From: Ideonella oryzae | GTDB lineage: Bacteria; Pseudomonadota; Gammaproteobacteria; Burkholderiales; Burkholderiaceae_C | Direction of reading: 5' to 3' | Assembly (NCBI RefSeq): GCF_024055665.1 | Contig: NZ_JAMXMC010000001.1 | Location: forward strand, 434,001 to 498,000 | Length of the DNA stretch: 64,000 nt | Shown: positions 48,400-64,000 of the stretch, in pieces | Layout of the letters: the number at the start of each line of letters is the position of its first letter | Numbering within the stretch: the stretch's first letter is position 1 | Position numbers and translations under genes: made by a program | The notes under the pieces: generated by a model | The model's database searches: none | What the model saw: only the letters and a program-made list of their open reading frames with translations | Told to the model about the DNA's origin: nothing

Positions 48400-51018
48400 A
48401 TGGACAAATTCACGCCTCTGTCAGCCCCCGACCACCATCTGGACAGCCCCGAGGCGGTCGCCCGCCGGCTCCAGGTGGACCCAGCACAGGGCCTGGCCAT
48501 GGACGAGGTGCAGCGCCGCCAGGCCCGCCATGGCCCCAACCGCCTGGCCGAAGCCGCCCCGCGGCCCTGGTGGATGCGCCTGCTGACCCCCCTGCTCGAC
48601 ACCATGACGCTGGTGCTGCTGGCCGCGGCCCTGGTGTCGGGCCTGATCGGCGACCTGGCCGACACGGTGGTGATCGCCGTCATCGTGGTGCTCAACACGG
48701 TGATCTCCGCGGTGCAGGAGTGGCAGGCCGACCAGGCCCTGGCCGCCCTGCAGCGCCTGGCCACCCACGACGCCCAGGTGCGCCGCGACGGCCAGGTGGG
48801 GCCGGTGCCGGCGGATCAGCTGGTGCCGGGCGACGTGGTGCTGCTGGAGGCGGGCGACCAGGTGCCCGCCGACCTGCGCCTGCACCAGGTGGCTCAGCTG
48901 CGGACCGATGAATCCGCCCTGACGGGGGAATCGCAGGCCGTGGACAAGCAGCCCGCCGCCCTGCCCCCGCCCGCCGAGGGCCAGGCCCATGCGCTGGGCG
49001 AACGCAACAACATGGCCTGGAAGGGCACCCTGGTCACCCACGGACGGGCCACCGGCCTGGTGGTGGCCACCGGCGCCGGCACGGAGCTGGGTCGCATCGC
49101 CGGCCTGCTGGCCCAGGCCGAGCGCCGCAGCACGCCCCTGCAGCAGCGGCTGACCGCCTTCGGCCGGCGGCTGTCGATGGGGGTGCTGGGCCTGTGCGCG
49201 GTGGTCTTCGCCATCGGCGTGCTGCGCGGCGAGCCGGTGCTGCTGATGGGGCTGACCGCCATCAGCCTGGCGGTGGCCGCCATCCCGGAGGCCCTGCCTG
49301 CGGTGGTCACCGTGCTGCTGGCCCTGGGGGCGCGCCGCCTGGTGCGGGTGCAGGCCCTGGTGCGCCAGCTGCCGGCGGTGGAGACGCTGGGCTCGGTCAC
49401 CACGATCTGTTCGGACAAGACCGGCACCCTCACCCGCAACCGGATGCAGGTGGAGGTCTGGCGGTCGGCCCACCCGGCCGGGGACGCCCTGCTGCGCGAG
49501 GCCGCCCTGCGCTGCAACGACGCGCGGGCCCACCCGCAGGGCTGGCAGGGCGAACCCACCGAAGTGGCGCTGGCGGAGTGGGCCGGCCCCACTGGGGACA
49601 GCCCCCCGGCCGCGCCCCGCCTGCGCGAATGGCCCTTCGACGCCGAGCGCCGGCGCATGAGCACCCTGACACCGGCCACCTCCGCTGCGGACGAGGCTGC
49701 CGCCTGGCTGTGGGTCAAGGGCGCCCCGGAAACCCTGCTGCCCCGCTGCACCCAGGCCCCCAGCCCCTGGCTGGCCCAGGCCGAGGCCCTGGCCGGCCAG
49801 GGCATGCGGGTGCTGGCCCTGGCCCGCCGCCGCCTGGACCCGCAGACCCTGGCCACCCAGGCCGGCGCCGACGAGGTCGAACGCGACTTGACCCTGCTGG
49901 GCCTGGTGGGCCTGATGGACCCGCCGCGGCCCGAGGCCGCCGCCGCCGTGGCCGAATGCCGGGCCGCCGGCATCCGACCGGTGATGATCACCGGCGACCA
50001 CCCCGGCACCGCGCGCGCCATCGCCCAGGCGGTGGGCATCGTGGACGACGCGCAGGCCCCGGTGCTGACCGGCGCCGAGCTGGCCCGGATGGACGACGCC
50101 CTGCTGGGCGCGCGGGTGGCCGAGGTGGCGGTCTATGCCCGCATGGACCCGGCGCAGAAGATCCGCATCGTGCAGGCCCTGCAGGCGCGCGGCGAGTTCG
50201 TCGCAATGACCGGCGACGGCGTCAACGACGCCCCCGCGCTCAAGGCCGCCGACATCGGCGTGGCCATGGGTCTGGGCGGCACCGACGTGGCCCGCGAGGC
50301 CAGCAGCCTGGTGCTGCTGGACGACCACTTCGCCACCATCGTGGCCGCAGTGCGCGAGGGCCGGCGCATCTTCGACAACATCCGCAAGTTCATCCGCTAC
50401 GCGCTGACCGGCAACTCCGGCGAGATCTGGGTGCTGTTTCTGGCCCCGCTGCTGGGCCTGCCGGTGCCGCTGCTGCCCATCCACATCCTGTGGGTGAACC
50501 TGGTGACCGACGGCCTGCCCGGCCTGGCCCTGGCCGGCGAACCCGCCGAGCGCGGGGTGATGCAACGCCCGCCCCGCCCCCCCACCGAAAGCATCTTCGC
50601 CCACGGCCTGTGGCAGCACGCCCTGTGGGTGGGCCTGCTGATCGGCGGCCTGTGCCTGGCCCTGCAGGCCTGGGCCCTGCAGGTGGGCGACACGCACTGG
50701 CAAAGCATGGTCTTCACCGCGCTGACCCTGACCCAGATGGCCCACCTGCTGGCCATCCGCTCCGAGACCGAGCCGCTGTGGCGCCTGGGCCTGGGCAGCA
50801 ACCGCCCGTTGCTGGGGGCCGTGCTGCTGAGCGTGGCCCTGCAGCTGGCCACGCTCTATGTGCCGGCCCTGCAGGCCATCTTCCACACCCAAGCCCTGGA
50901 CGCCGCCGAACTGGGCCTGTGCTTTGCCGCCGCGGGCCTGGTCTGGGCGGTGGTGGAGGTGGAGAAGGCCTGGCGGCGACGGACCGCCCGAAGCCAGCCG
51001 CCGACTCAGAACCGGTAG
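48400..51018 (+). CDS. P2-type cation-transporting ATPase (Ca2+-like)
   Basis: An 872-residue P-type ATPase. The actuator has TDESALTGES. M4 has IPEALPAVVT, as in Ca2+/Mn2+ pumps. The phosphorylation site is CSDKTGTLT (Asp about 339). The N-domain has KGAPE, and the P-domain has MTGDGVNDAPALK. The C-terminal six-helix part (LPIHILWVNLVTDGLPGLALAGEPAE) matches P2A-type enzymes. Expected role is export of Ca2+ or Mn2+ from the cytoplasm. The 3' end overlaps the end of the convergent MipA-type gene by 13 bases. Confidence 0.94.
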   Translation: MDKFTPLSAPDHHLDSPEAVARRLQVDPAQGLAMDEVQRRQARHGPNRLAEAAPRPWWMRLLTPLLDTMTLVLLAAALVSGLIGDLADTVVIAVIVVLNTVISAVQEWQADQALAALQRLATHDAQVRRDGQVGPVPADQLVPGDVVLLEAGDQVPADLRLHQVAQLRTDESALTGESQAVDKQPAALPPPAEGQAHALGERNNMAWKGTLVTHGRATGLVVATGAGTELGRIAGLLAQAERRSTPLQQRLTAFGRRLSMGVLGLCAVVFAIGVLRGEPVLLMGLTAISLAVAAIPEALPAVVTVLLALGARRLVRVQALVRQLPAVETLGSVTTICSDKTGTLTRNRMQVEVWRSAHPAGDALLREAALRCNDARAHPQGWQGEPTEVALAEWAGPTGDSPPAAPRLREWPFDAERRRMSTLTPATSAADEAAAWLWVKGAPETLLPRCTQAPSPWLAQAEALAGQGMRVLALARRRLDPQTLATQAGADEVERDLTLLGLVGLMDPPRPEAAAAVAECRAAGIRPVMITGDHPGTARAIAQAVGIVDDAQAPVLTGAELARMDDALLGARVAEVAVYARMDPAQKIRIVQALQARGEFVAMTGDGVNDAPALKAADIGVAMGLGGTDVAREASSLVLLDDHFATIVAAVREGRRIFDNIRKFIRYALTGNSGEIWVLFLAPLLGLPVPLLPIHILWVNLVTDGLPGLALAGEPAERGVMQRPPRPPTESIFAHGLWQHALWVGLLIGGLCLALQAWALQVGDTHWQSMVFTALTLTQMAHLLAIRSETEPLWRLGLGSNRPLLGAVLLSVALQLATLYVPALQAIFHTQALDAAELGLCFAAAGLVWAVVEVEKAWRRRTARSQPPTQNR

Positions 51019-51749
51019 GCCAGCCCGAGCAACACCGTCGAGCGCACCCGGTCCCCCGTCGACAGCGGGCTGCGGCGGATGGCGTCATCCAGGAACTGCG
51101 CGCGCCAGTAGGCATGCAACTCAATCCGGTCCGTGAGCGGCGTCTCCACCAGCAGCCCCAGGTGCGGGTTCAGGGCGGCCCCGGGCCGGTAGGCCGGGCC
51201 GACCGTCGCCAGATCCGACCCCGAGACGCCCGCGTAGTACCGGACGTAGGCGGCATCCTCGAACTCCAGACCGAGTTCGGGAAAGAGCGTGGTCCGCCCC
51301 AGGCGGAACCGGGCCAGGTAGCGGGCCTGCACGATCAGCCCGCCGGAGGGGCCGAGGTCCCCCAGGACGTTCAGACCGAATGCGCCGACCGGCGTCACCT
51401 GCAGCGTGCCCAGGCCCAGGGGGATCGCGTCATCGCGCCGGCGCAGGCCCGACACCCGGTAGCCATCGCCACGGTACTGGCCCACGAGCTCCAGCGCACC
51501 ATCGCCCAGCGGCGCCAACTGCACACCGAAGGTGTCGATGCGTGCGAAGACCGGGCCCCAGGTGAAATTCAGGTAGGGCATGGGATCGGTGCTCGTGCGA
51601 ACACCCCGGATGTCGTGCGGCGACCGGACCGCCCCAATGCCGACATCCCCGGACAGGTCGGCGGCCCCCGCCGCCCCGGCCAGGGCCAGCGTCGCCACAC
51701 CGGCCCACACCCTCACCCGACGCAGGAAGGTCCGAACAGGCGCGCTCAC
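51006..51749 (-). CDS. MipA/OmpV-family outer-membrane protein
   Basis: A 247-residue beta-barrel with signal peptide (AGVATLALAGAAGA-AD) and alternating beta-strands ending STVLLGLAYRF (C-terminal Phe). The MipA/OmpV family holds murein-synthesis scaffolds and porin-like proteins. The start is GTG at 51749, overlapping the stop of the upstream membrane-protein gene (GTGA), with AAGGA upstream. It is the last gene of the 13-kb minus-strand run and could be its outer-membrane channel. Confidence 0.82.
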   Translation of the reverse strand: MSAPVRTFLRRVRVWAGVATLALAGAAGAADLSGDVGIGAVRSPHDIRGVRTSTDPMPYLNFTWGPVFARIDTFGVQLAPLGDGALELVGQYRGDGYRVSGLRRRDDAIPLGLGTLQVTPVGAFGLNVLGDLGPSGGLIVQARYLARFRLGRTTLFPELGLEFEDAAYVRYYAGVSGSDLATVGPAYRPGAALNPHLGLLVETPLTDRIELHAYWRAQFLDDAIRRSPLSTGDRVRSTVLLGLAYRF

Positions 51750-52467
51750 CAGAGATCCTTCCCGCGCTTCCACGCCATCCCGCCCGCCCAGGCCACCCAC
51801 AGCGGCACCACGATCATGTAGACGTTCAGGGCGTTGTCGGCCAGCCCCCGCAGCGAGAACAGCTCGCCCACGCCCGACAGCACCGAGCCCAGCGCGCCGA
51901 TGAAGCCCACCACGGCGAAGGCCTTGTGGTCGCGCCAGGTCAGCGCGCTGACACAGGCGCCCCAGACGCCCACCAGCAGGTACTCCACCCGCCCCCACAG
52001 GCCGGTGTAGACCAGCTGGGTGACCAGCTTGAACTGCTCGGTGAGGATCTGCAGCCGCGCCGGGTCCTGGCCGCTTGGACGTGATCCCGGATCAGGCTGG
52101 GCCACAGCACGGACAGGATGCCGCCGCCCAGCGCCCCGGTGAGGATGTAGAGCAGCATGCAGACAGTGGCCACGGCCATCACGAAGGGGTTGCGCTCGCG
52201 CAGCCAGTGCCAGAGGTAAAGCGTCGCCGGGATCATCAGCAGGTAGAAGCCGAAGATGTCGCACAGCATCGCCCCCTCGATCAGATCGGCCTTCTCCAGG
52301 CTGGCCCGCCGCAGCTGGTTGAGCGGATCGGTCATCGCATCCAGGTCGAAATCGACCGTGCGCAGGGCCAGGTACAGACAGGCGAAGCCCAGGAGAACGC
52401 CCAGCCAGGTGATGAGGGCCACCGCGCGCGGGTACAGCGGCGGCGAGGAGAGTTGTGTCGGAGTCAT
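51746..52467 (-). pseudogene. integral membrane protein gene with one-base frameshift
   Basis: Reading from ATG 52467 gives four TM-rich segments (AVALITWLGVLLGFACLYLAL; DIFGFYLLMIPATLYLWHWL; VAT...LYILTGALGGGILSVLW) up to SLIRDHVQ. The coding sense then continues in another frame: SGQDPARLQILTEQFKLVTQLVYTGLW...VVPLWVAWAGGMAWKRGKDLW to 51746. The two parts overlap and join smoothly if one base is restored near 52075-52079 (minus-strand CAC GTC CA. AGC GGC CAG). The whole would be about 240 residues with six TM. It is either a real mutation or a sequencing error; no slippery homopolymer is present. Family not recognised with confidence (DUF4386-like at best). Confidence 0.85.
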
Positions 52468-52550
52468 GCCAGGGTCAAAAGGAGAGACAGGAAGCCAGGG
52501 AAACAAGGAGATGCAGGTCAGCGGTGCACGCCAGACGCCGGGCCGGCGTC

Positions 52551-53222
52551 TCAGGGCTGGGCCAGGGCACGGGCCAGCGCATCGATGTCCTGATCGCTCA
52601 GGCTGCGGCTGACCGCCTGCATCTGCCCGGACGGATCGACGCGGTCGCCGGCGCGGAAGGCACGCAGCTGGCGCGCCAGATAGCCCGGCGACTGCCCGGC
52701 CAGGCGCGGCGCGGCCACGGGGCCGGTGGCGGACGTCGCGCTGCCGCCCTGCAGCTGGGCGCCATGGCAGGCGGTGCAGGATGCGAGCTGCGGCAGCAGG
52801 ACCATGGCGCGGCCCGGCGTCAGCCCGGCCTCCGAGGCCGAGAAGTAGGCCACCAGGGCATGGATCTGGGCCTCGCTCAGGGACGCGGCCAGGGGCTCCA
52901 TCTGCGGGTTGCGGCGCTCACCGCTGGCGAAGCGCCGCAGCTGGGCCTCGAGGTAGGCCGCGGGCTGACCGGCCAGGCGCGGATAGGCGGGGTTGAGACT
53001 GGCGCCACCGAAGCCATGGCAGCCCACGCAGGCCTGGGCCCAGGCACTGGCCTGCGGTCCGCGCGCGGCCACCTGGGCGGCCTCCCGGTCCAGCGCCTGC
53101 TTGAACTGCCACAGGCCCCAGACGTCCCGGCCCCAGTAGAGCCCGGCCCCCAGGGCCAGGGCCAACAACAGCAGCCACAGGCGCGAGATGCGGCCGCGCA
53201 TCGAAGTCCGAGAGGCGTTCAT
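52551..53222 (-). CDS. di-haem cytochrome c (c4-like)
   Basis: A 223-residue periplasmic protein anchored by an N-terminal helix (about 15-30). Two class-I cytochrome c domains follow: CVGCH (65-69) with the axial Met in NPQMEPLA, and CTACH (149-153) with Met in GQMQAVS. Both repeats share the PRLAGQ motif of c4-type cytochromes. Its start overlaps the amine-oxidase stop (ATGA), so it is the obvious electron acceptor for that enzyme or passes electrons from it to an oxidase. Confidence 0.93.
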   Translation of the reverse strand: MNASRTSMRGRISRLWLLLLALALGAGLYWGRDVWGLWQFKQALDREAAQVAARGPQASAWAQACVGCHGFGGASLNPAYPRLAGQPAAYLEAQLRRFASGERRNPQMEPLAASLSEAQIHALVAYFSASEAGLTPGRAMVLLPQLASCTACHGAQLQGGSATSATGPVAAPRLAGQSPGYLARQLRAFRAGDRVDPSGQMQAVSRSLSDQDIDALARALAQP

Positions 53223-54742
53223 GCCGACACCTCCCGCCCGGCAAGGCGGGACTGAAGGGCCTGCAGGGCCACCAGCGCCGCGGTGTGGCCGGAGCGCACC
53301 GCGCCGTCCATGTAGCCGTACCAGAGGTCGGCCGTTTCCGTGCCGGACCAGATGAGCGAGCCCAGGTTGCGGGTCAGGGCCGGCATCAGGCCGCTGGTGA
53401 GAAAGCCCGGCGCCATCGGCGACACGCAGCTCAGGGTGTAGGGCTCCTGTCCCCAGTCCTGCAGATGGAACTCCAGCGGCGCGAGGAAGCGCTTGTCCTG
53501 CATCGCCTCGGCGTAGATCGTGGCCAGCCGCTGTCGGGCCGCCGCAGGGTCGCCCGGCATCTCGCCGATGCGCACGAAGGCGTTGATCACGCCCAGGCGC
53601 TGGTCGGGCGGCGAGTTGTCGTAGGACCAGATGACCGGCCCGTCCACGCAGCCGATCTGGCCGTTGTAGCCCTTGGCGAACCAGAAGGGCTCGGGGTAGA
53701 CCATGGCCGTCTTGGCGAAGGGCCCGTGGGTGGGCCACAGGCGTTGCAGGCGCTGCCGGTCGGCAGGCAGCGCGGGCTCGAAGGCCAGCCGGTGGCACAG
53801 CGAGGGCGACAGCGCCACGATCACCCGGCGGGCGCGGAACACGCCCTGGGGCGTGTGCACCTCGGTGACGGGCTGGTCCCAGTGGGCGATGCGCGTCACC
53901 GGCGTCTTCAGGCGCACGAAGTCCTTCAAGGCCTCGGCCATCCGAATGCTCAAGCGCTGCGAGCCGCCGATGAAGCGCGTCTCCTGTGCCGCATCCTTCT
54001 GGCCCTCCAGCGTCTGGAAGCCGCCGGCATAGCGGATCAGCGAGAGGTATTGCAGCAGGGACACCTGGGCCAGCGAGGTCCCCATGGTGAGCACCGAGGC
54101 GAACTGCCAGGTCAGCATGTCCTGCTCGCTCACGTGGCGACGGGCCAGCCAGTCGGCCATGCTCAGCTTGTCCAGCGCCGCCGCCTCGGGCGCGGCCCAG
54201 GGCCGCACGGGGCGCAGGCTGCGCGCCAGCGCATCCACCTCGGCCACGAGCGTGGGGTCCATGTCCACCTGGCCGTGGGTGTCCTCGACCACCCTCCCCT
54301 GCCCCATGCAGTACACCCCGCGCCCGCGGTAGTCGGACTTGAAGGTGCCGATCTCCAGCTCGCGGGCCAGGTCGGCCACGGCGGTCTGGCCCGGCCCGAT
54401 CCACTGCCCGCCCGCCTCGCTGATCTGACCATCGCGCAGCTGGTGGTTGAGGGTGCGCCCGCCCACCCGGTCCCGCGCTTCGAGCACCAGGAAGCGGCGA
54501 TTGCCGGCTCGGTGCAGGTCGCGCGCGGCCGTCAGGCCGGCCAGACCGGCGCCGATGATCAGCACATCCAGCACCTCGCCGTCGCCATCGCCCTGGGTGG
54601 CCGGCCGAGGGCCCGCCCCCGCGGGGGCGGTGGCCGCCAGGCCCGAGGCCAACACGGCGGCCCCTTGCAGCCAGCGGCGGCGGCCGGTGTCGGGTGGCTC
54701 TACCGCGGGGTGGGCCCGGGGTCCTGCTGTGTCAGCGCCCAT
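53219..54742 (-). CDS. Tat-exported flavin monoamine oxidase-like protein
   Basis: A 507-residue FAD enzyme. A twin-arginine signal (GRRRWLQGAAVLASGLA, Arg 21-23) implies export in folded form. The Rossmann motif VLIIGAGLAGLTAARDL (about 60-77) and LEARDRVGGRT are amine-oxidase hallmarks. The C-terminal FAD contact is IWSGTETADLWYGYMDGAVRSG. Monoamine-oxidase-type enzymes oxidise amines; with a coupled cytochrome c it may work as a dehydrogenase. No aromatic-cage or Cys-FAD motif (SGGC) is visible, so the flavin is probably noncovalent. ATG at 54742 has GAGGAG upstream. Confidence 0.92.
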   Translation of the reverse strand: MGADTAGPRAHPAVEPPDTGRRRWLQGAAVLASGLAATAPAGAGPRPATQGDGDGEVLDVLIIGAGLAGLTAARDLHRAGNRRFLVLEARDRVGGRTLNHQLRDGQISEAGGQWIGPGQTAVADLARELEIGTFKSDYRGRGVYCMGQGRVVEDTHGQVDMDPTLVAEVDALARSLRPVRPWAAPEAAALDKLSMADWLARRHVSEQDMLTWQFASVLTMGTSLAQVSLLQYLSLIRYAGGFQTLEGQKDAAQETRFIGGSQRLSIRMAEALKDFVRLKTPVTRIAHWDQPVTEVHTPQGVFRARRVIVALSPSLCHRLAFEPALPADRQRLQRLWPTHGPFAKTAMVYPEPFWFAKGYNGQIGCVDGPVIWSYDNSPPDQRLGVINAFVRIGEMPGDPAAARQRLATIYAEAMQDKRFLAPLEFHLQDWGQEPYTLSCVSPMAPGFLTSGLMPALTRNLGSLIWSGTETADLWYGYMDGAVRSGHTAALVALQALQSRLAGREVSA

Positions 54743-55874: not shown

Positions 55875-56356
55875 CACATGCCCCCGCCCACCAGGGCCGA
55901 GCCCGGCTGCACGCCCTCGCAGCCCGTGGGCACCTCGGTGACGCGGGTGAAGATCTCGGTCTCGCCGTTGACCTCGCTGCCCACGTAGGCGCGCACATGC
56001 ACATGGCCATCCTTGAGCCGCAGCTTGGCGTTGTAGGCCTTGCGCTTGCGGGTGTCGAAGGCCCAGCCGTCCTTCCAGACGCCGTTGTCGAAGCGGGCCG
56101 CTTCGAAGATCTTGCGGTTGCAGTCCACCGGAGAGGTCCGGTTCGGCTTGCCGACCTCGGACTCCCAGACGATCACGCCGCACAGCCCGGTGGGCGGGCC
56201 GCCGTGGTAGATGGCGCAGCGCTGCAGCTGGATGACGGCGTCGCCCTGGGCGGTGCGCCAGGTGCCGAGGAAGTCGTCCCCGCTGTCGGCCGCGCGCAGC
56301 GCGGGGCTCAGCGACAGGGTCAGCGCCAGGACGGCAGCGGTGCGGGCGATGGGCAT
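55874..56356 (-). CDS. DUF2147 periplasmic protein
   Basis: A 160-residue exported protein with signal peptide (LALTLSLSPALRA-AD). The DUF2147 fold is recognised from DDFLGTWRTAQGDAVIQLQRC, then GLCGVIVWESEVGKPN and GNKAYNAKLRLKDGHVHVRAYVG-like strands (here RKAYNAKLRLKDGHVHVRAYVG). The lipocalin-like family is associated with lipid or short-chain ligand genes in Gram-negatives; role uncertain. SD GGAGAGG precedes the ATG. Confidence 0.88.
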   Translation of the reverse strand: MPIARTAAVLALTLSLSPALRAADSGDDFLGTWRTAQGDAVIQLQRCAIYHGGPPTGLCGVIVWESEVGKPNRTSPVDCNRKIFEAARFDNGVWKDGWAFDTRKRKAYNAKLRLKDGHVHVRAYVGSEVNGETEIFTRVTEVPTGCEGVQPGSALVGGGM

Positions 56357-57202: not shown

Positions 57203-58261
57203 TCAGGCCCGTGCCGCGGGGATGGCGCGCTGCGCGGCCCAGCTGCGGTAATGGTCGACCAGGGTCTCGCGCACCGGTCGGTAGACGATGCCCAGCTCCG
57301 CGATGCTGCGGTGGTTGTCCACCGCGAAGCGGATGCCCAGGTGCTTGCGGATGTAGTCCTGCGTGAGCCCGAAGAGGGGACCGATCAGGCGCACCAGCAG
57401 GTCGGGGATCTGGTGCCGGGGCAGCAGCCAGGGCCGGTGATGGACCTCGCGCAGCAGCTTCGAAATGTCCACGAAGGACAGCATCTGGCGCTCGGCCAGG
57501 ATGTAACGGCCATGGGCTTCTTCCCGGCGCGCGGCCTGCACATGGGCCTGGGCCACCTCGCGCACGTCCACCGTGGTCAGGCTCAGGTCGGGCATGCCGT
57601 AGAAAAAATAGCCCTTGAGCATCTCGTCGAGCAGGAACAGGCTGCCCGACTCGGACCCCGGGGTCAGCGAGGGCCCCAGGATCATGCCGGGGTTGATCGT
57701 CACCAGGCGCCAGCGCTGCTGGGCCTCGCACAGCCGCCAGGCCTCCTTCTCGGCCTCGGTCTTGGCGTAGTGGTAGGGGTTGTTGTCCAGCGTGCTGCTG
57801 GTGTTGAAGCAGGCCTCGCTGAGCGTGGCGTTCTTCATCTGCAGCACGTCGGCGTAGTCGCCGAAGATGGCGCCCACGGTGGAGGTCATCACCACCCGCC
57901 GCACCGAGGGCGTGCGCTCGACGCTGCCCAGCACGTTGCGGGTACCCTGCAGCGCCGGCTCCAGCATCTCGCGCCGGCCGTCCTTGATCTTCTCGGGCAG
58001 CATGAACGGCGAGGCCACATGGTGGACCACGCTGCAGTCGGCCATGGCCCGGTCGAAGGAGCCGGGGGCCAGCAGATCGGCCTCGAAGAGCTGCAGCCGT
58101 GCGCCATGGCGCTGCTGCAGTTGGCGCAGCGGCCGCAGCTTGAGCTCGTTGCGCAGGCTGCGCACGGTGGCATGCACCGTGTCGCCGGCCTCCAGCAGCT
58201 GCTGGACCAGATGGCAGGCCACGAAGCCGCTGCCTCCGGTGACCAGGGAGGTCGTTGGCAT
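57203..58261 (-). CDS. NAD(P)-dependent reductase, dihydroflavonol-4-reductase-like extended SDR
   Basis: A 352-residue extended SDR. The N-terminal SLVTGGSGFVACHLVQQLL is a TGGxGF cofactor site. Catalytic YHYAKTEAEKEAW (Tyr-X3-Lys) is present, and the substrate loop carries NPGMILGPSL and DVREVAQAHVQAA. The family reduces ketones or aldehydes to alcohols (DFR, cinnamoyl-CoA reductase, some sterol dehydrogenases). Start at 58261 has AAGGA upstream; an in-frame ATG nine bases earlier is less well placed. Confidence 0.91.
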   Translation of the reverse strand: MPTTSLVTGGSGFVACHLVQQLLEAGDTVHATVRSLRNELKLRPLRQLQQRHGARLQLFEADLLAPGSFDRAMADCSVVHHVASPFMLPEKIKDGRREMLEPALQGTRNVLGSVERTPSVRRVVMTSTVGAIFGDYADVLQMKNATLSEACFNTSSTLDNNPYHYAKTEAEKEAWRLCEAQQRWRLVTINPGMILGPSLTPGSESGSLFLLDEMLKGYFFYGMPDLSLTTVDVREVAQAHVQAARREEAHGRYILAERQMLSFVDISKLLREVHHRPWLLPRHQIPDLLVRLIGPLFGLTQDYIRKHLGIRFAVDNHRSIAELGIVYRPVRETLVDHYRSWAAQRAIPAARA

Positions 58262-58274
58262 GGAGAACATCCTT

Positions 58275-59435
58275 TCAGGCGGATGGCGGGGTGGAACCGT
58301 GGCGGCGCGCGGCCCACAGCACGCCTGCAGACAGCAGTGCGAAACCGCTGCTCAGCAGGGGCACCGGGCTGGCGTCGTCCCCTTGCACGAGGAAGGACGC
58401 GGTCAGCGGCCCAAAGGCCGCGCCCAGCAGCTGGGCCGCGGGCACCAGGCCGGCCACCCGGCCGCTGCGGTCGGCCCGGAAGGCCAGGGCGATGTGGAAG
58501 GGCAGCATGAACAGCCAGACGAAGCCGAACACGGCGCAGCCCAGCATGAAGTGCAGCGCATGGCCACCCGGCAGCTGGTGCACGCCCAGGGTGATGGCGC
58601 CCAGCAGCGCCGAGCAGACCAGCAGCGTGGGCACCGTGGGCAGGCGGCGCACGGCCGTGGTGGCCACGCTGCCGCCCAGCACCTGCATGAACAGCACGCC
58701 GGCGATCAAGGACTGCGCGGCCCGGGCATCCAGCCCGGCGGCCTGGCCCAGCGGCTCCAGATAGGCCCAGAAGGCGCCCAGGGCGGCCAGATGGAGCAGG
58801 ACCGCCGGCAGGGGCAGCATGGTGCGCAGCGACCAGCGAAAACCCGTCACCGAGGGCGGCGACAGCGGCGCCAACCGCGTCGGCTGCGCGAAGGCCAGCG
58901 GCAACGCCAGCAGCGTCAGCAGGGCCAGGGTGGCGAAGCCGCCCTGCCAGCCCCAGCGCGGCAGCACCGCGTGGGCCAGCAGCGCGCCCAGGGCGGCCTG
59001 CCCCAGGGTCTGCACCACGAAGAAGATGCCGGCCACCCGAGCCGGGTTGGCGCAGCGCACCACCACGCCGGTGGTGCCCCAGACCAGCACGCCCTCGGCC
59101 AGGCCGGCCCCCGCGCGCAGCGCGGTCATGCTGCCGTCGCCGGTGGCCTGCAGGCTGAGCAGGTCCAGCCCGGCACCCAGCAGCCCGGCCAGCAGCGTGA
59201 TCAGGCGCAGGCGCGCCACCGGCAGCAGGGCGTCGCCCAGCGCCACCCCCAGGCCCAGGGCGATGATCTCGGCCATCGCCACCAGGCCCACGCCTTCGAG
59301 GCTGACCTGGTGGGCATCGACCAGCTCGCCCAGCAGGATGGGCTGGATGCCCACCATCAGCACGCCGATACAGCCCACCGCCAGGGCCGACACCATCTGG
59401 CCCGCGGTGAATTCGGTGGAAGAGACAGTTGACAT
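58275..59435 (-). CDS. MFS transporter
   Basis: A 386-residue permease with about 12 hydrophobic segments. It is shorter than classical MFS proteins and has weak A-motif-like loops (FRADRSGRVAGLVP). Possible sugar- or drug-type substrate; not assignable. It lies between the two aldolase-like genes and the reductases, and probably moves the pathway substrate across the inner membrane. Confidence 0.88.
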   Translation of the reverse strand: MSTVSSTEFTAGQMVSALAVGCIGVLMVGIQPILLGELVDAHQVSLEGVGLVAMAEIIALGLGVALGDALLPVARLRLITLLAGLLGAGLDLLSLQATGDGSMTALRAGAGLAEGVLVWGTTGVVVRCANPARVAGIFFVVQTLGQAALGALLAHAVLPRWGWQGGFATLALLTLLALPLAFAQPTRLAPLSPPSVTGFRWSLRTMLPLPAVLLHLAALGAFWAYLEPLGQAAGLDARAAQSLIAGVLFMQVLGGSVATTAVRRLPTVPTLLVCSALLGAITLGVHQLPGGHALHFMLGCAVFGFVWLFMLPFHIALAFRADRSGRVAGLVPAAQLLGAAFGPLTASFLVQGDDASPVPLLSSGFALLSAGVLWAARRHGSTPPSA

Positions 59436-59487: not shown

Positions 59488-60153
59488 TCAGTAGCCCTTG
59501 GCCTCTTCGGGCAGCAGGCCCTGGGCCCAGCGGGCCACGGCCGCGCGCCGGTCCTTGCGCAGCCGGCCATTGGCCACCCGGCGCACCAGCCACGGCAGGG
59601 GCCGCACCGGCCCGCCGCTGGCCGCGGCCAGCACATAGGCCTTGGCGCATTTCTCGAACAGTTCGGTGTTCAGCGCCAGGCGGGTGGCCGTCATGGCCAG
59701 GCACAGCGGCCGGCCCTGCAGCAGCTGCACCTGGCCGCCGGCCTGCAGCGCACGGGCGGCCTCGGTCAGGTCGGCAGCCGGCGCGCCCATGGGGCCGAGG
59801 TGGCGGGCCTGCTCGTCGAAGACCTGCGGCAGCACACCGCCCACATCGGCCAGGCGATGGCCGAAGACACCGCCGCCCCAGGCCACCGCGCCGGCATCGT
59901 CACGGTGGCGGTAGACCATGGCGTGCAGGTCCTGCAAGGCATCAGCCGCCGCCGCGGGGCGAGGCTGCGGGTCCCAGCTCACCCGCCGGGGTGCCGCGTC
60001 GTCGGCCGCCCCCACCCACATGGCCGGCTGGCCCGGGATTCGCAGGGACAGGCTGGCGCCCGGCCCGTCCAGCAGCCGCTTGGCCTGGAGCCGGTCGCGC
60101 AGGGCCAGCCACGGGGTGTGCGAGAGGGGGTCCACCTGGGTGTCGGTCGTCAT
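59488..60153 (-). CDS. class II aldolase/adducin-like protein lacking metal ligands
   Basis: A 221-residue protein whose first 150 residues follow the class II aldolase fold (WLALRDRLQAKRLLDGPGASLSLRIPG; DLHAMVYRHRDDAGAVAWGGGVFGH). Where true aldolases have the zinc-binding HxH after the AV, this one has AWGGG, and the NHG motif is absent. It is therefore probably non-catalytic in the usual way, perhaps a partner of the intact aldolase encoded 1.5 kb upstream in the same run. The C-terminal tail (RPLPWLVRRVANGRLRKDRRAAVARW) is strongly basic. Confidence 0.78.
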   Translation of the reverse strand: MTTDTQVDPLSHTPWLALRDRLQAKRLLDGPGASLSLRIPGQPAMWVGAADDAAPRRVSWDPQPRPAAAADALQDLHAMVYRHRDDAGAVAWGGGVFGHRLADVGGVLPQVFDEQARHLGPMGAPAADLTEAARALQAGGQVQLLQGRPLCLAMTATRLALNTELFEKCAKAYVLAAASGGPVRPLPWLVRRVANGRLRKDRRAAVARWAQGLLPEEAKGY

Positions 60154-60167
60154 CGCTGCGGGCCTCC

Positions 60168-61655
60168 TCAGACCAGCTTGAACACGTCTTCGAAACGGTT
60201 CAGGGCATCGTCGATCACGGCGTCGGTGTCGGCCAGGCTGGTGTAGATGCGGCTGCCGGCCAGGGTGATCAGGCCGTGGGCGGTGTAGGCCGCGCCCATG
60301 GCCTCCATCATGTGCTTGCGCTGCGTGGCCTCGTTCTTCACACGCAGCAGCTTGAAGATGTTGCTGGTGTCCAGCAGCAGCACGCCCGAGGTCTGCAGGT
60401 GCACGATGGAGCCCATGTTGTAGACCACATAGGGCAGGCCCAGGCGATGGATGATGGCTTCCAGGCCCTGGCGCAGCCGGTCACCGGCCCGGCCGGCCAC
60501 GCCCGCGGCACCAGTGCGCTGCGCTTCCAGCAGCGCGTGGTAGCCGGCCACGCAGGACAGCGGGTTGGCCGAGAGCGTGCCGCCCACGAAGGCCCGCCGC
60601 GTGGTGGTGCCGATGCCGCCCACCAGCAGCATCATCACGTCCTTGCGGCCACCGATGGCGCCGGCCATGGGGTAGCCGCCGGTCAGACACTTGCCCAGCA
60701 CGGTGAGGTCGGGCTTGACGTTGAAGTAGGCCTGGGCGCCGCCCATGCCCAGGCGGAAGCCGGTGACCACCTCGTCGAAAATCATCAGCGCGCCGAACTC
60801 GTCGCACAGCTGGCGCACCTGGCGGTTGTAGTCGGGGTGGACCGGCCGGGTGCCGCTCTCCGGGCCCAGCGGCTCCAGCAGGACGGCGGCGGTGCCCCCG
60901 CGCAGCCGGTTGAGCTGCAGCTTGCGGCGCAGGGCGTCCAGGTCGTTGGGGTGGCACTCCTGGGTGTTGCCGGTGGCCCCGCGCGGGATGCCCACCGCCT
61001 CCATGCGGCCGGTGCTGGGCAGGCGCATGCCGTAGACCAGCTGATCGCTCCAGCCGTGGTAGGCGCCGCCCACCTTGATGATCCACTTCTTGCGGGTGTA
61101 GGCGCGGGCCAGGCGCACCGCGCCCATCACCGCCTCGGTGCCTGAACCCAGCAGGCGCACCATCTCCACGCCGGGCATGCTCTGGCACACCAGCTCGGCG
61201 AGCTTGACCTCGTACTCGTGCAGCAGGCCGGTGACCGGGCCGCAGCTGTCGAGCACCTCGTTGACCTTCTGCCGCACCACCGGGTGGTTGGAGCCCAGCA
61301 GCGTGGGGCCGCCGGCCTGCAGGAAGTCGATGTAGCGGTTGCCGTCCACATCGGTCATGTGGGCGCCTTCGGCCTGGGTGATGGCCAGCGGGAAGGGGTG
61401 GTTGAAGGCCAGGTTGTGCTGCACACCACCCGGAATCACCGCCTTGGCCCGCTCGGCCAGGCGGCGCGAGCCCTGGCAGCGCTCGTCGAAGTAGCGCATG
61501 ACCTGGGGCAGCTTGTCGGCCCGGATGGGGCGCATGGGCTGCTTGACCAGCGCGTCGAAGCGGCGGTAGAGCTCGGCCACATCGGGCCAGGCGGAGATGG
61601 CGGGGCGGGCCGGCAGGCCGGCGACAGGGGGAGGACAGGGGCTCATGGAAGGCAT
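60168..61655 (-). CDS. PLP-dependent class III aminotransferase, glutamate-1-semialdehyde aminomutase-like
   Basis: A 495-residue fold-type-I PLP enzyme. HemL-like features are AVIPGGVQHNLAFN, TDVDGNRYIDFLQAGGPTLLGSNHP, GSGTEAVMGAVRLARAYT (phosphate-contact), GGAYHGWSDQ, the PLP Asp in LMIFDEVVTGFR and the Schiff-base Lys in LTVLGKCLTGGYPMAG (about 320). It is about 65 residues longer than HemL, with an extra N-terminal segment. Likely transaminates or isomerises an amino-carbonyl substrate of the local pathway rather than serving tetrapyrrole synthesis. ATG at 61655 or 61646. Confidence 0.9.
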   Translation of the reverse strand: MPSMSPCPPPVAGLPARPAISAWPDVAELYRRFDALVKQPMRPIRADKLPQVMRYFDERCQGSRRLAERAKAVIPGGVQHNLAFNHPFPLAITQAEGAHMTDVDGNRYIDFLQAGGPTLLGSNHPVVRQKVNEVLDSCGPVTGLLHEYEVKLAELVCQSMPGVEMVRLLGSGTEAVMGAVRLARAYTRKKWIIKVGGAYHGWSDQLVYGMRLPSTGRMEAVGIPRGATGNTQECHPNDLDALRRKLQLNRLRGGTAAVLLEPLGPESGTRPVHPDYNRQVRQLCDEFGALMIFDEVVTGFRLGMGGAQAYFNVKPDLTVLGKCLTGGYPMAGAIGGRKDVMMLLVGGIGTTTRRAFVGGTLSANPLSCVAGYHALLEAQRTGAAGVAGRAGDRLRQGLEAIIHRLGLPYVVYNMGSIVHLQTSGVLLLDTSNIFKLLRVKNEATQRKHMMEAMGAAYTAHGLITLAGSRIYTSLADTDAVIDDALNRFEDVFKLV

Positions 61656-61671
61656 TCGTGGGGATGGAACA

Positions 61672-62322
61672 TCAGCCCGCGAGCGCGTCCAGGACGCGGC
61701 GCAGGGGCGCTTGCAAGGAAGGGGTCTGGGTGGCGCGCCGGGCGATGCGCTGGCGCAGCAGGTCCTGGCACAGGGTCTCCAGGTCCTCCACGGCCTGCAG
61801 GGCCTGCTCGACCGTGGGGCCGCAGCACAGCACGCCGTGGTTGCGCATCAGGTAGGCCTGGGTGTCCGGGCGCAGGGCCCGGCCCAGCTTGCCGGCCAGC
61901 CAGCCGCTGCCCGAGGGGGCATAACCCACCACAGGCACGCGACGCCCGAGCGTGCGCTGCCACGGCGGCGGCACGTCCAGGCCGGCGCCCAGCAGGGCGC
62001 AGGCGCTGGCCACCGGCTGGTGGGTGTGGATGCTGGCCCGCACATCGGGCCGGGCGCGCAGCACCCGGGCGTGCAGGCTGCTTTCGACCGAGGGCGGGCG
62101 CACGCCTTCGAGCTGCCGCAGGTCCGACAGGCGCAGCACGCACACATCGGCGGCCGTCATGGTGGGGTAGTCGGTGGCCGAAGGCGTCACCACGATGCGC
62201 TCGGCGTCCACGCGCAAGGCGATGTTGCCGCCGGTGCCGGAGAAGTGGCCGCGCTGCGAGAGCCGGTGGCACAGGTCCACCACGGTCTGGCGCAGCGCCT
62301 GGGTGCTGGCGTCGGTGTTCAT
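61672..62322 (-). CDS. class II (fuculose-phosphate-type) aldolase
   Basis: A 216-residue zinc-dependent aldolase or epimerase. The phosphate-binding loop is HFSGTGGNIALRV, the catalytic acid is Glu in PSVESSLHARVL, zinc ligands are in ASIHTHQP, and MRNHGVLCCG supplies the third His. All required residues are present. The family cleaves sugar 1-phosphates such as L-fuculose-1-phosphate into DHAP and an aldehyde. Its ATG overlaps the stop of the FGGY kinase gene (ATGA), so kinase then aldolase act in sequence. Confidence 0.93.
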   Translation of the reverse strand: MNTDASTQALRQTVVDLCHRLSQRGHFSGTGGNIALRVDAERIVVTPSATDYPTMTAADVCVLRLSDLRQLEGVRPPSVESSLHARVLRARPDVRASIHTHQPVASACALLGAGLDVPPPWQRTLGRRVPVVGYAPSGSGWLAGKLGRALRPDTQAYLMRNHGVLCCGPTVEQALQAVEDLETLCQDLLRQRIARRATQTPSLQAPLRRVLDALAG

Positions 62323-63938
62323 GCGGGGCTCCCTTGGGGCCGGTTGAGGCGGTGGTACAGCGGCGCCAGGCGCGCGCGCACCTCCTTGAAGGTCTGGAAC
62401 TGGTCGTCGTAGAGGCGGCGCAGCGCGCGGGCGGGCTCGTAGACGCGCTGGACCTGGCGCAGCTCGCCCAGGTCGGCAAAGCGCAGCGCCCCCAGGCCCA
62501 CGGCGGCGATGTAGGTCGCGCCGATGGCATTGGCCTGGATGGAGTTCACCAGCTGGCGGATGGGCTGGCCGGTGATGTCGGCGATGATCTGGCACCAGAC
62601 GTCGGACTGCGCCCCGCCGCCCACGGCGGTGATGGTGCCCACATCGCGCCCGAGGAAGCGGGCGAAGGGCTCCAGCATCCAGCGGGTGTTCAGGGCCACG
62701 CCCTCCAGGAAGGCGCGGAAGATGTCCTCGCGCGAGTGCTCCAGCGAGAGGTTGATCAGCCCGGCGCGCAGCCGGGGGTCGTCCACCGGGGTGCGCTCGC
62801 CGGCCAGCCAGGGCGTGTAGATCAGCCCGCGCGCACCGGGCGGCACCCGGGCCGCGATGCGGTTGAGCACCTGGTACACGGCGGGGTGCTCCTCGTCGCT
62901 GGCCAGCTCGTCGGGGTGGTAGAGGATGCGGTCGCGCAGAAAGGACAGGTTGGCCCCGGCCGTGGACTGCAGGGCCATGGCCAGGTAGCGACCGTCCACC
63001 GCGCTGGGAATGGCGGCGATCTTGTGCCGCACATCGGTCTTCATGGCGGGCACATGGGCGCCCAGCCAGGACGAGGTGCCCAGGTAGAGGTGGCTCTCGA
63101 AATCGTTGACCGCGGCGCCCACCGCCACGGCGGAGTTGTCCACCGCCCCGGCCACCACCACGGTCTTCGCCGCCAGGCCCAGGGCCTGAGCCACCGCGGG
63201 CAGCAGCGGACCCAGCACGTCGGTGGAGTGCACGATCTCGGGCAGCTTGTCGGCGTCCAGACCCAGCATGCGGATCAGGCTGGCGTGGTAGCGCACCTGG
63301 TGCGCATCCCGGTTGTCCGTCACCCAGGCCGTGACCGCCGAATCCTGGGTGGCGCAGCAGCGGCCGGACAGGCGCAGGTTCAGGTAGTCCAGCACATTGA
63401 GGAACTTGTGGGTGCGCGCATAGCGCTCCGGCTCCTCGTCACGGATGTAGACCATGTGCCCCGCCGAATCGCGGCCCGACAGCGAGGGCGCGCCGCCGGT
63501 CAGGCGCAGCCAGCGCCAGAGCTTGAGCGGGCCATAGCCCTCGATGCTGCCGAACCGGCCGCGGGCGCGCCGCGCCATGGCCTGCGCGCCGCGCGCATCC
63601 AGCCAGGTCAGGGCGCGGCCCAGCGCACGGCCCTCGCGGTCCACGCAGACGGTGCCCTCGGTCTGGGTCGAGCAGCACACGGCCACCACGCGGGCGCGCA
63701 GGCTCGGATCACCTGCCAGCACCTCGCCGGCCGCCTCCAGAAAGGCTGTCCACCAGTCCTCGGGGGCCTGCTCGGCCAGCGCGCCCTGCACATGCAGCTG
63801 CACCGGCCGGAAGGCCCAGGCCTGCACGCTGCCGTCCAGGGACACCAGGGCGCATTTGCAGCCCGAGGTCCCCAGGTCGACCGCCAGCACCAGGCGCTCG
63901 TCCACCGTGCGGGGGCGGAATGTCGCGGACAGGGTCAT
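62319..63938 (-). CDS. FGGY-family carbohydrate kinase
   Basis: A 539-residue sugar or polyol kinase. The N-terminal ATPase motif is LAVDLGTSGCKCALVSLDG, followed by QTEGTVCVD, the metal/substrate Asp region AGAVDNSAVAVGAA, and the FGGY adenosine motif ITAVGGGAQSDVWCQIIADITGQPI. Closest in feel to xylulokinases and less so to glycerol kinase. It would phosphorylate the substrate before aldol cleavage. It starts one base after the stop of an outer-membrane protein gene and overlaps the aldolase gene by four bases. Confidence 0.93.
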   Translation of the reverse strand: MTLSATFRPRTVDERLVLAVDLGTSGCKCALVSLDGSVQAWAFRPVQLHVQGALAEQAPEDWWTAFLEAAGEVLAGDPSLRARVVAVCCSTQTEGTVCVDREGRALGRALTWLDARGAQAMARRARGRFGSIEGYGPLKLWRWLRLTGGAPSLSGRDSAGHMVYIRDEEPERYARTHKFLNVLDYLNLRLSGRCCATQDSAVTAWVTDNRDAHQVRYHASLIRMLGLDADKLPEIVHSTDVLGPLLPAVAQALGLAAKTVVVAGAVDNSAVAVGAAVNDFESHLYLGTSSWLGAHVPAMKTDVRHKIAAIPSAVDGRYLAMALQSTAGANLSFLRDRILYHPDELASDEEHPAVYQVLNRIAARVPPGARGLIYTPWLAGERTPVDDPRLRAGLINLSLEHSREDIFRAFLEGVALNTRWMLEPFARFLGRDVGTITAVGGGAQSDVWCQIIADITGQPIRQLVNSIQANAIGATYIAAVGLGALRFADLGELRQVQRVYEPARALRRLYDDQFQTFKEVRARLAPLYHRLNRPQGSPA

Positions 63939-63939
63939 G

Positions 63940-64000
63940 TCAGAAGCGGTAGGTGGCCGAGGCCAGCACCTTGCCCTGGTCCGTCGCACGCCAGTGGTCG
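63940..64000 (-). CDS. C-terminus of an outer-membrane beta-barrel protein (5' part outside window)
   Basis: The last 19 codons read HWRATDQGKVLASATYRF then stop. The aromatic C-terminal Phe and alternating hydrophobic pattern are typical of an outer-membrane barrel end. It is one base upstream of the FGGY kinase, so the 13-kb run probably begins further right with an uptake porin or TonB-type receptor. Which family cannot be said. Confidence 0.6.
   Translation of the reverse strand, partial: DHWRATDQGKVLASATYRF

What the first reader, a model, noticed from the sequence alone, without database searches (positions are those of the whole stretch)
51006..64000. Thirteen-kb single-direction gene run that looks like an undescribed kinase/aldolase/amine-oxidase pathway
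Directly visible: at least fourteen genes on the minus strand, with gaps of 1-85 bases and five overlaps (for example ATGA at 62319-62322 and 53219-53222). In order they are outer-membrane protein, FGGY kinase, class II aldolase, HemL-like PLP enzyme, degenerate aldolase, MFS transporter, DFR-like reductase, SDR, DUF2147, AraC regulator, Tat amine oxidase, di-haem cytochrome c, membrane protein and MipA. Family knowledge: kinase plus aldolase split phosphorylated sugars; flavin amine oxidase and PLP enzyme handle an amino group; cytochrome c takes electrons. Inference: an uptake, oxidation and cleavage route for an amino-sugar, amino-polyol or similar compound, or alternatively a biosynthetic route. 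I know no described pathway with this set.
Basis: partly seen in the sequence, partly recalled or inferred. Interest (0 to 1): 0.85.

Follow-up and report, generated by a model that had tools for sequence, protein, structure and literature searches.

The report
Candidate sphingoid-base degradation operon, split aldolase
A conserved bacterial gene set (a sugar-type kinase, a zinc aldolase apparently split into two partner proteins, and a vitamin-B6 enzyme) looks like an undescribed route for breaking down sphingolipid backbones such as phytosphingosine, whose fate in bacteria is still unsolved.

Summary
The run is real, from 65321 (beyond the window) to 51006, but is two things. (1) A conserved core: divergent TetR | DUF2147–porin–FGGY kinase–ald1–HemL-like PLP enzyme–ald2–MFS, plus DFR-like and SDR genes. 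FGGY and HemL-like occur in the same 12 of 299 family genomes; FGGY–ald1–HemL–ald2 order holds in 32 of 35 loci; Chloroflexi, Spirochaetales and Butyrivibrio have single-aldolase versions. (2) A loose tail (amine oxidase, cytochrome c, frameshifted membrane gene, MipA), seen only in this genome and, on a separate contig, relative G008. The "degenerate aldolase" is no relic: 34 of 34 ald1 keep the zinc site and catalytic Glu but not FDEQ; 34 of 34 ald2 keep FDEQ but not the HxH metal pair. FDEQ's Asp sits at FucA Tyr113', which acts across the subunit interface, so the two probably form one split aldolase. Substrate clues: Pseudomonas sphBCD homologues beside 6 of 36 cassettes, SphR-like regulators before 7 kinases, aldehyde dehydrogenase in 12 of 36, one Mpo1-like gene. 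Best reading: phytosphingosine-type 2-amino-1,3,4-triol → 2-ketone → 1-phosphate → DHAP + long-chain aldehyde. Inferred, not assayed.

The parts
63940..64000 (-). 3' end of TorF/Gcw_chp family putative porin (gene runs 64872-63940, mostly beyond the window; preceded by DUF2147 65321-64869 and divergent TetR 65377-66084)
   Evidence: L009 read beyond the window; PF09694 E 6e-11 over cut-off, TIGR02001 37 bits, below its cut-off 47; clustered in 15 of 36 loci
62319..63938 (-). FGGY carbohydrate kinase (core)
   Evidence: PF00370+PF02782; best NCBIfam XylB 253 bits, below equivalog cut-off 380; same 12 of 299 family genomes as HemL-like
61672..62322 (-). ald1: class II aldolase subunit carrying the zinc site, catalytic Glu and most of the phosphate site (core)
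   Evidence: PF00596 E 7.5e-42; 34 of 34 keep FucA E73, H92, H94, H155 equivalents; model pLDDT 91.7, best PDB fold match is the DHAP-bound aldolase 6btg
60168..61655 (-). HemL-like class III PLP enzyme, proposed sphingoid-base C2 transaminase (core)
   Evidence: PF00202 E 6e-53; closest solved GSAM 243 bits and D-phenylglycine aminotransferase 212 bits; lacks the GSAM SPVRAF motif
59488..60153 (-). ald2: class II aldolase-fold partner subunit without the HxH metal pair but with invariant FDEQ and the C-terminal helix (core)
   Evidence: 34 of 34 keep FDEQ, 0 of 34 either His of HxH; hhalign to single aldolases prob 99.7; model pLDDT 93.2 matches FucA/AraD folds
58275..59435 (-). MFS transporter (core)
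   Evidence: PF07690; an MFS within five genes of HemL in 30 of 35 loci
57203..58270 (-). DFR/HpnA-like extended-SDR reductase (accessory)
   Evidence: PF01370/PF01073; clustered in 6 of 36 loci incl. Rhizobium alvei; also a cut copy at the end of L017
56371..57192 (-). classical SDR (accessory)
   Evidence: PF00106; 3 of 36 loci; an SDR also on the B. ambifaria plasmid
55874..56356 (-). DUF2147 protein (accessory)
   Evidence: PF09917; DUF2147-cluster genes in 17 of 36 loci
54828..55874 (-). AraC regulator, in one clade with P. aeruginosa SphR
   Evidence: 34% identical to SphR over 333 aa and best of 11 SphR matches in the genome; tree clade 100/99 that also takes in one unlinked own-genome paralogue
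53219..54742 (-). flavin amine oxidase, MAO/putrescine-oxidase type, twin-arginine-like N-terminus by eye (lineage-specific addition)
   Evidence: PF01593; nearest PDB monoamine oxidase 8p84 E 8e-73; in 0 of 36 cassette loci as held, 2 of 16 genus and 2 of 299 family genomes
52551..53222 (-). di-haem cytochrome c, 4-base overlap with amine oxidase (lineage-specific addition)
   Evidence: PF00034, two stretches; overlap
51746..52467 (-). membrane-protein gene, interrupted by a frameshift in this genome
   Evidence: three-frame translation; intact in one frame in G008
51006..51800 (-). MipA-family outer-membrane protein (start codon uncertain), convergent with an ORF at 48232-51018 (+) that looks like a P-type ATPase by eye
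   Evidence: PF06629 E 8e-29

Best explanation
The core (FGGY kinase, ald1, HemL-like PLP enzyme, ald2, MFS, plus regulator and envelope proteins) is a mobile catabolic cassette for sphingoid bases with a 2-amino-1,3,4-triol head, phytosphingosine being the obvious natural one. Proposed route: the HemL-like enzyme transaminates the C2 amine to a ketone; the FGGY kinase phosphorylates C1, as fuculokinase and rhamnulokinase do with ketoses (recalled); the ald1/ald2 heteromer then cleaves C3-C4 of this long-chain ketose-1-phosphate into dihydroxyacetone phosphate and a long-chain aldehyde (pentadecanal), which an aldehyde dehydrogenase oxidises. It is the fucose/rhamnose logic (isomerase, FGGY kinase, class II aldolase, transporter, aldehyde dehydrogenase) with a transaminase in place of the isomerase. 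The aldolase active site is shared: ald1 supplies zinc, catalytic Glu and phosphate contacts, ald2 the acid/base from across the subunit interface. In this genome an amine oxidase/cytochrome c pair is appended, perhaps as a stand-in for the periplasmic SphC/SphB oxidation found beside other cassettes. Shown by sequence: cassette conservation, residue partition, sphBCD/SphR homology. Inferred: substrate, order of steps, products, heteromer, role of the tail.
For: Cassette: FGGY and HemL-like in the same 12 of 299 family genomes (this genome among them) with none discordant at E 1e-100; FGGY-ald1-HemL-ald2 order in 32 of 35 loci, an aldolase directly upstream of HemL in 34 of 35 and FGGY within two genes in 34 of 35 (some of the 12 genomes and the 35 loci are the same DNA); Chloroflexi and Spirochaetales versions, Butyrivibrio and conjugative Burkholderia plasmids; a minimal version. 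Split aldolase: 34/34 versus 34/34 residue partition, both sets present in the single aldolases L044 and L045; ald2 aligns with the singles into the C-terminal tail, ald1-ald2 only to about residue 187; both model as class II aldolases; FucA Tyr113' from the neighbour deprotonates C4-OH and Glu73 acts at C3 (PMC11841055, passages); the FDEQ Asp aligns with Tyr113. Of the five FucA phosphate contacts named, Asn29 is kept in 34/34 ald1, Thr43 is Ser 34/34, Ser71 is Ser 30/Thr 4, Gly44 is Ala 31/Gly 3, Ser72 is Val 33/Ile 1. Substrate: a cytochrome/oxidase/PLP trio beside 6 of 36 cassettes is 37-59 / 39-48 / 42-53.5% identical to true SphB/SphC/SphD (genuine sph locus); SphC-like proteins are uncommon (6 of 274 class genomes at E 1e-60) and no SphB/C/D/R match at E 1e-8 lies in the 41 non-orthologous loci L053-L093 (unmatched controls, largely other phyla); SphR-like AraC (36-41%) upstream of the kinase in 7 loci; aldehyde dehydrogenase in 12 of 36 loci (family tested on one member) and on both plasmids; an Mpo1-like 2-hydroxypalmitate dioxygenase gene next to one cassette. 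Precedent: a class III aminotransferase makes 2-keto-HFB1 from the sphingoid analogue HFB1 (PMC9025740, PMC9858248, passages).
Against: No assay, expression or growth datum. sphBCD-like genes are beside only 6 of 36 cassettes, several of them related, and none is over cut-off in this genome; an alkaline ceramidase search also found nothing, but it rang in no control genome, so it proves nothing. Most cassettes have TetR rather than the SphR-like gene next to the kinase (26 versus 4 of 35). No aldehyde dehydrogenase lies in this genome's run. The Mpo1-like gene is beside one locus only, on the opposite strand. The SphR clade also holds an own-genome AraC unlinked to the cassette. Archaeal relatives at 40-43% sit beside other genes, one an L-fucose isomerase, which could mean sugar substrates; L042 has HemL without kinase or aldolase. 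The Butyrivibrio aldolase has the zinc site but not FDEQ. The HemL-like enzyme is closer to GSAM than to the HFB1 transaminase FumI (243 versus 96 bits). P. aeruginosa needs sphBC for growth with phytosphingosine, and the passages read mention no such cassette there.
Confidence: 0.42

Rival explanations
1. Same chemistry on a soluble substrate: a 2-amino-2-deoxy-alditol, amino-ketose or similar amino-sugar derivative is transaminated, phosphorylated and cleaved to DHAP plus a short aldehyde.
For: FGGY kinases and FucA-type aldolases classically act on sugars (families); an L-fucose isomerase gene lies beside a distant archaeal HemL-like gene; genes that look by eye like sugar-acid catabolism lie beyond the minimal cassette in G015; an ABC transporter (by eye) and a glutamine-synthetase-domain gene precede the Rhizobium alvei cassette.
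Against: SphR-like regulators, sphBCD homologues and TonB receptors near cassettes fit a hydrophobic substrate better; I saw none of the sugar-related neighbours recur in the cluster list.
Confidence: 0.25
2. The HemL-like enzyme is a vicinal aminomutase rather than a transaminase: it moves the amino group between C2 and C1 of an alpha-amino aldehyde made by a periplasmic oxidase (SphC-like or the amine oxidase), feeding the kinase and aldolase.
For: Closest characterised relatives are glutamate-1-semialdehyde 2,1-aminomutases; an SphC oxidase could supply an aldehyde (the authors of PMC11893366 mention a reactive aldehyde aldol as a possible product).
Against: The GSAM SPVRAF motif is missing and a conserved GSR segment stands near the C-terminus in 38 orthologues (that Arg32 and Glu406 are GSAM active-site residues is recalled, not from a call); the minimal cassette has no adjacent oxidase.
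Confidence: 0.12
3. A biosynthetic cassette: the aldolase condenses DHAP with a long-chain aldehyde and the PLP enzyme aminates the product to make a phytosphingosine-like lipid or signal.
For: The aldolase and transaminase steps are formally reversible; DFR-like reductase and SDR could act on sphingoid ketones (inference).
Against: Porin, TonB receptor, MFS and aldehyde dehydrogenase neighbours, patchy and partly plasmid-borne distribution and the kinase direction argue for catabolism.
Confidence: 0.06
4. ald2 is a decaying duplicate with no catalytic role, and ald1 works alone.
For: ald2 has lost both His of the HxH pair in 34 of 34 (the third His position is His in 4, the Glu position Glu in 8) and is not recognised by Pfam or NCBIfam.
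Against: FDEQ is invariant in 34 of 34 and 35 columns are invariant in the 30 ald2 aligned; ald1 has lost exactly what ald2 kept; ald2 directly follows HemL in 32 of 35 loci.
Confidence: 0.1

Closest known systems
L-fucose / L-rhamnose catabolism (FucI-FucK-FucA, RhaA-RhaB-RhaD)
   Same: FGGY kinase then class II aldolase of a ketose-1-phosphate giving DHAP and an aldehyde, with MFS transporter and aldehyde dehydrogenase (pathway recalled; families)
   Different: No isomerase seen in the cassette; a class III PLP enzyme stands in its place; aldolase split over two genes
Pseudomonas aeruginosa sph regulon (sphA, sphBCD, sphR)
   Same: Homologues of SphB, SphC, SphD beside 6 of 36 cassettes and SphR-like regulators beside 7 kinases
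   Different: The 13 kb of the P. aeruginosa sph locus shown has no FGGY kinase, class II aldolase or HemL-like gene; this genome has no SphC-like protein over cut-off
Sphingopyxis fumonisin cluster, FumI aminopentol aminotransferase (PDB 6hbs)
   Same: Class III PLP enzyme removing the C2 amine of a sphingoid analogue
   Different: Only 96 bits against 243 for GSAM; no kinase or class II aldolase step in the passages read
DHAP-type class II aldolases 6btd/6btg (5-deoxyribose disposal, as recalled) and L-fuculose-1-phosphate aldolase
   Same: Best fold and sequence matches of ald1 and top matches of the single Chloroflexi aldolase
   Different: One gene product carries the whole site; here the acid/base residue is on a separate gene product
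Glutamate-1-semialdehyde 2,1-aminomutase (HemL)
   Same: Fold family, conserved GK motif at the PLP lysine, 37% identity to this genome's paralogue that has the GSAM motif
   Different: SPVRAF motif absent, different C-terminal segment, about 60 extra N-terminal residues

Membership tests
FucA-type class II (zinc) aldolase | three His metal ligands and catalytic Glu | tested here: met
   ald1 34 of 34 have all four; ald2 0 of 34
FucA-type class II (zinc) aldolase | acid/base residue from the neighbouring subunit (Tyr113' in FucA) | tested here: inconclusive
   FDEQ absent from 34 of 34 ald1 (one has Asp at that column); ald2 has Asp of FDEQ there in 34 of 34; heteromer not shown
FucA-type class II (zinc) aldolase | phosphate-binding residues | tested here: inconclusive
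   In ald1 Asn29 kept, Ser at 43, Ser/Thr at 71, Ala/Gly at 44, Val/Ile at 72
FGGY carbohydrate kinase | both FGGY domains | tested here: met
   PF00370 and PF02782 well over cut-off; none of the 12 NCBIfam models listed reaches its cut-off
Glutamate-1-semialdehyde aminomutase | curated score and substrate-carboxylate motif SPVRAF (role of the motif recalled) | tested here: not met
   hemL 290 bits versus 527, NF000818 308 versus 398; invariant QHNLAF instead of the motif in 38 orthologues
P. aeruginosa sphingosine (sph) regulon | SphC-type oxidase with lipoprotein cytochrome c and SphR | tested here: not met
   Window genome: no SphC-like over cut-off; AraC 34% to SphR. The trio is present only in some related cassettes
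L-fucose/L-rhamnose pathway | aldose-ketose isomerase with the kinase and aldolase | tested here: not met
   none among the ten window proteins scanned or the recurring neighbour clusters scanned; other neighbours judged by eye
Sphingoid-base catabolic pathway | acts on sphingoid bases | not testable with these tools
   needs enzyme assay or growth data
Fumonisin (fum) cluster | FumI-type aminotransferase | tested here: not met
   6hbs only 96 bits, 35 other solved sequences score higher

The most novel reading that the evidence does not exclude
A new bacterial pathway that treats phytosphingosine as if it were a long-chain amino-sugar: transamination to a C18 ketose, FGGY phosphorylation, and retro-aldol cleavage by an obligate heteromeric class II aldolase whose active site has been partitioned between two duplicated genes, yielding DHAP and pentadecanal; carried in part on plasmids and found in Proteobacteria and, with an undivided aldolase, in Spirochaetes, Chloroflexi and Firmicutes.
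Probability: 0.38. Interest if true: 0.88.

Novelty: new variant of a known kind. Interest (0 to 1): 0.72.

Why it matters
[quoted passage not shown] The same text notes that these antimicrobial lipids are on mammalian epithelia and are released by plants into the rhizosphere. A defined enzymatic route to central metabolism, with three assayable enzymes, would make the question directly testable. Separately, the ald1/ald2 pair would be a clear natural case of an interface active site divided between gene duplicates, readable from sequence alone because the undivided form survives in Chloroflexi and Spirochaetales loci.

Tried and rejected
Rejected: amine oxidase as a core step; GSAM function; hopanoid biosynthesis, considered because DFR scores on HpnA (99.7 versus cut-off 368) and AO weakly on HpnE (39.7 versus 283); an autoinducer-2 (LsrK) role, because the kinase is far below that cut-off (137 versus 528). 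Led nowhere: Rfam and tRNA scans (0 hits); promoter/terminator scan (0 promoter-like sites against 0.4 expected, 4 terminator-like against 2.4); order-wide searches (1 of 349 genomes each, only this one); literature searches for the pathway and for a bacterial ceramide reductase link to DFR (listing only, not followed). First, cruder neighbour gene calls were replaced by those. Loci left out of the call-36/97 counts: L047 (4.2 kb), L048 and L049 (archaeal, 40-43%), and the non-orthologous L053-L093; itself kept the best 80 of 104. Not independent: L015 and G015, L017 and G008, and L018, L027, L033, L043, L052 and five of the 12 family genomes are the same DNA.

Corrected on re-check: the counts of residues kept by ald2, the invariant C-terminal segment (GSR), the gap range, the order count (32 of 35), and the statement on the tail genes in L017/G008.

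Full report
WHAT IS THERE. The window is G000:C1:434001-498000. Reading on past the window (L009) shows that the porin gene (64872-63940) and a second DUF2147 gene (65321-64869) precede the kinase, and that a TetR gene (65377-66084) is divergent. The other end is a convergent ORF that looks by eye like a P-type ATPase (48232-51018). The membrane-protein gene is frameshifted here; an intact copy exists in G008.

A CONSERVED CORE AND A LOOSE TAIL. A scan of bacterial and archaeal genomes with the HemL-like protein kept the best 80 of 104 loci. Of those, 36 with 65-94% identity and usable length were given gene calls (L047 and the archaeal L048, L049 left out). HemL is called in 35 of 36 (L050 starts inside it). 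Among the 35: FGGY-ald1-HemL-ald2 in that order in 32; an aldolase directly upstream of HemL in 34, an ald2 directly downstream in 32 (not L042, L044, L045), FGGY within two genes in 34, an MFS within five genes in 30, TetR nearby in 26, AraC upstream in 4. Across all 36: DUF2147 17, porin 15, aldehyde dehydrogenase 12, TonB receptor 7, DFR-like 6, sphBCD-like trio 6, SDR 3, flavin monooxygenase 2; amine oxidase, the window's cytochrome c, membrane protein and MipA 0 (flanks reach at most 10 kb and some loci are short). One of the 36, L017, is the same DNA as G008 and its contig ends inside DFR; G008 carries AraC, amine oxidase, cytochrome c, membrane protein and MipA in the window's order at the end of another contig, so the tail probably follows the cassette there as well. 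In 299 genomes of the family, FGGY and HemL-like searches at E 1e-100 ring in the same 12, this genome included, on the same contig about 1 kb or less apart; in 349 of the order only this genome rings; 4 of 60 relatives, all of this genus and including this genome, have HemL-like at E 1e-100. The amine oxidase is in 2 of 16 genus genomes (this one and G008) and not in G011 and G015, which have the cassette; in the family sample it is in 2 of 299, one of them without the cassette. G015 shows a minimal cassette, TetR | FGGY-ald1-HemL-ald2-MFS, with genes on the other strand beyond the MFS. It can be mobile: a conjugative Burkholderia ambifaria plasmid and a Butyrivibrio plasmid carry it.

THE SPLIT ALDOLASE. 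ald2 has no Pfam or NCBIfam hit but aligns by profile with the single aldolases of Chloroflexi L044 and Spirochaetales L045 (99.7% probability) and models confidently (pLDDT 93.2) as a class II aldolase (FucA 1fua TM 0.69-0.74). In 34 ald1 (32 loci, L128, window) all keep the equivalents of FucA Glu73, His92, His94, His155 and Asn29; none keeps FDEQ (one has Asp at that column). In 34 ald2 all keep FDEQ; none keeps either His of the HxH pair; the third His position is His in 4 and the Glu position Glu in 8. L044 and L045 have both sets; the Butyrivibrio aldolase L129 has the zinc site but SPEE in place of FDEQ. The FDEQ Asp aligns with FucA Tyr113. Passages of PMC11841055 state that Tyr113' (from the neighbouring subunit) deprotonates the C4 hydroxyl and Glu73 acts at C3; passages of PMC11274987 state that each FucA centre is built from residues of two adjacent subunits. 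ald2 also aligns with the single aldolases into the C-terminal tail, whereas the ald1-ald2 alignment stops at about residue 187. The plain reading is a heteromer in which each active site takes zinc, Glu and phosphate contacts from ald1 and the acid/base from ald2. Oligomerisation was not tested.

THE PLP ENZYME. Its nearest solved relatives are GSA aminomutases (243 bits) and D-phenylglycine aminotransferase (212 bits). In 38 orthologues it has invariant QHNLAF where GSAM has NSPVRAF, an invariant ESGTRP, and an invariant GSR near the C-terminus. I recall, without a call, that the Arg of SPVRAF binds the GSA carboxylate and that a C-terminal Glu lies at the GSAM active site. A glutamate-semialdehyde role is therefore unlikely; transamination is preferred.

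WHY SPHINGOID BASES. A cytochrome c / FAD oxidase / alanine-racemase-domain PLP trio lies near 6 of 36 cassettes (families). Compared with the genuine P. aeruginosa sph locus (annotated sphR beside argB), the three are 37-59%, 39-48% and 42-53.5% identical to SphB, SphC and SphD, in the same order. Passages and sections of PMC3900636 and PMC11893366 give sphBC a needed role in sphingosine metabolism, sphBCD as induced through SphR, and the product as unidentified. SphC-like proteins are uncommon (6 of 274 class genomes at E 1e-60), and no SphB, C, D or R match at E 1e-8 lies in the 41 non-orthologous loci L053-L093 (these are largely from other phyla and are not matched controls). AraC genes upstream of the kinase in L038-L041 and L109-L111 are 36-41% identical to SphR; with the window AraC (34%) they fall into one supported clade with SphR, although that clade also takes in one unlinked own-genome AraC; the window AraC is the best of 11 SphR matches in this genome. 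An aldehyde dehydrogenase lies near the cassette in 12 of 36 loci and on both plasmids. On the B. ambifaria plasmid a gene of the Mpo1-like 2-hydroxypalmitate dioxygenase family (PF06127, E 2.8e-23) lies beside it; that yeast Mpo1 acts in phytosphingosine breakdown is recalled. A class III aminotransferase making a 2-keto product from the sphingoid analogue HFB1 is known (passages).

MECHANISM. Phytosphingosine is HOCH2-CH(NH2)-CH(OH)-CH(OH)-R. Transamination at C2 gives a long-chain 1,3,4-trihydroxy-2-ketone, chemically a ketose. FGGY phosphorylation at C1 gives a ketose-1-phosphate, the normal kind of substrate of FucA-type aldolases, whose cleavage gives DHAP and R-CHO. The order of transamination and phosphorylation is open. 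Sphinganine and sphingosine lack the C4 hydroxyl and could not be cleaved this way, which may be why some cassettes sit near sphBCD. The window's amine oxidase (nearest solved: a monoamine oxidase) and di-haem cytochrome c may replace SphC/SphB as a periplasmic oxidation step, but nothing here shows it.

AGAINST. No functional datum; sphBCD adjacency in a minority; this genome lacks an SphC-like protein over cut-off and an aldehyde dehydrogenase in the run; a fucose isomerase beside a distant archaeal homologue; one orthologue (L042) without kinase or aldolase; regulator mostly TetR. These keep the substrate at moderate confidence (0.42); the existence of the core cassette is near certain and the split aldolase is, in my estimate, about 0.8.

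NOVELTY. Searches (open-access full text only; listings) showed no paper that I recognised as describing this gene set or such a route. All enzyme families are known; the combination, the proposed substrate and the partitioned aldolase are not described in what I saw.

Noticed in passing
window 51746-52467: Membrane-protein gene carries a frameshift in this genome; the same gene is intact in relative G008 (L099).
   Followed up: partly
L127 (NZ_CP070468.1): A 93-kb record labelled as a P. aeruginosa plasmid holds ordinary chromosomal genes in the stretch shown (argB, pyrE, rph, gmk, sph locus), so it may be a mislabelled chromosomal piece.
   Followed up: no
L048 3305-5119 and 6083-7504: Helarchaeota MAG: L-fucose isomerase gene just upstream of a 43% HemL-like homologue; no kinase or aldolase of this cassette matched in the locus.
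   Followed up: partly
L042 5745-8867: A 71% HemL orthologue with a divergent regulator but no matching kinase or aldolase, followed directly by a type-B carboxylesterase (the family I recall for fumonisin esterase FumD).
   Followed up: partly
L041 1-5997: Rhizobium alvei cassette is preceded by what looks like a branched-chain-type ABC transporter (by eye) and a glutamine-synthetase-domain gene.
   Followed up: partly
L044 8114-9157, L045 6758-7975: Chloroflexi and Spirochaetales cassettes use a different MFS family (FLVCR-like by recalled resemblance) from the proteobacterial ones.
   Followed up: no
L128 16509-17574: Mpo1-like gene (83 aa) beside an IS5 transposase gene on a conjugative plasmid; another IS5 and a Tn3 transposase gene lie on the other side of the cassette.
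   Followed up: partly
window 48232-51018: Convergent ORF, P-type ATPase by eye, whose end overlaps the end of MipA by 13 bases.
   Followed up: no
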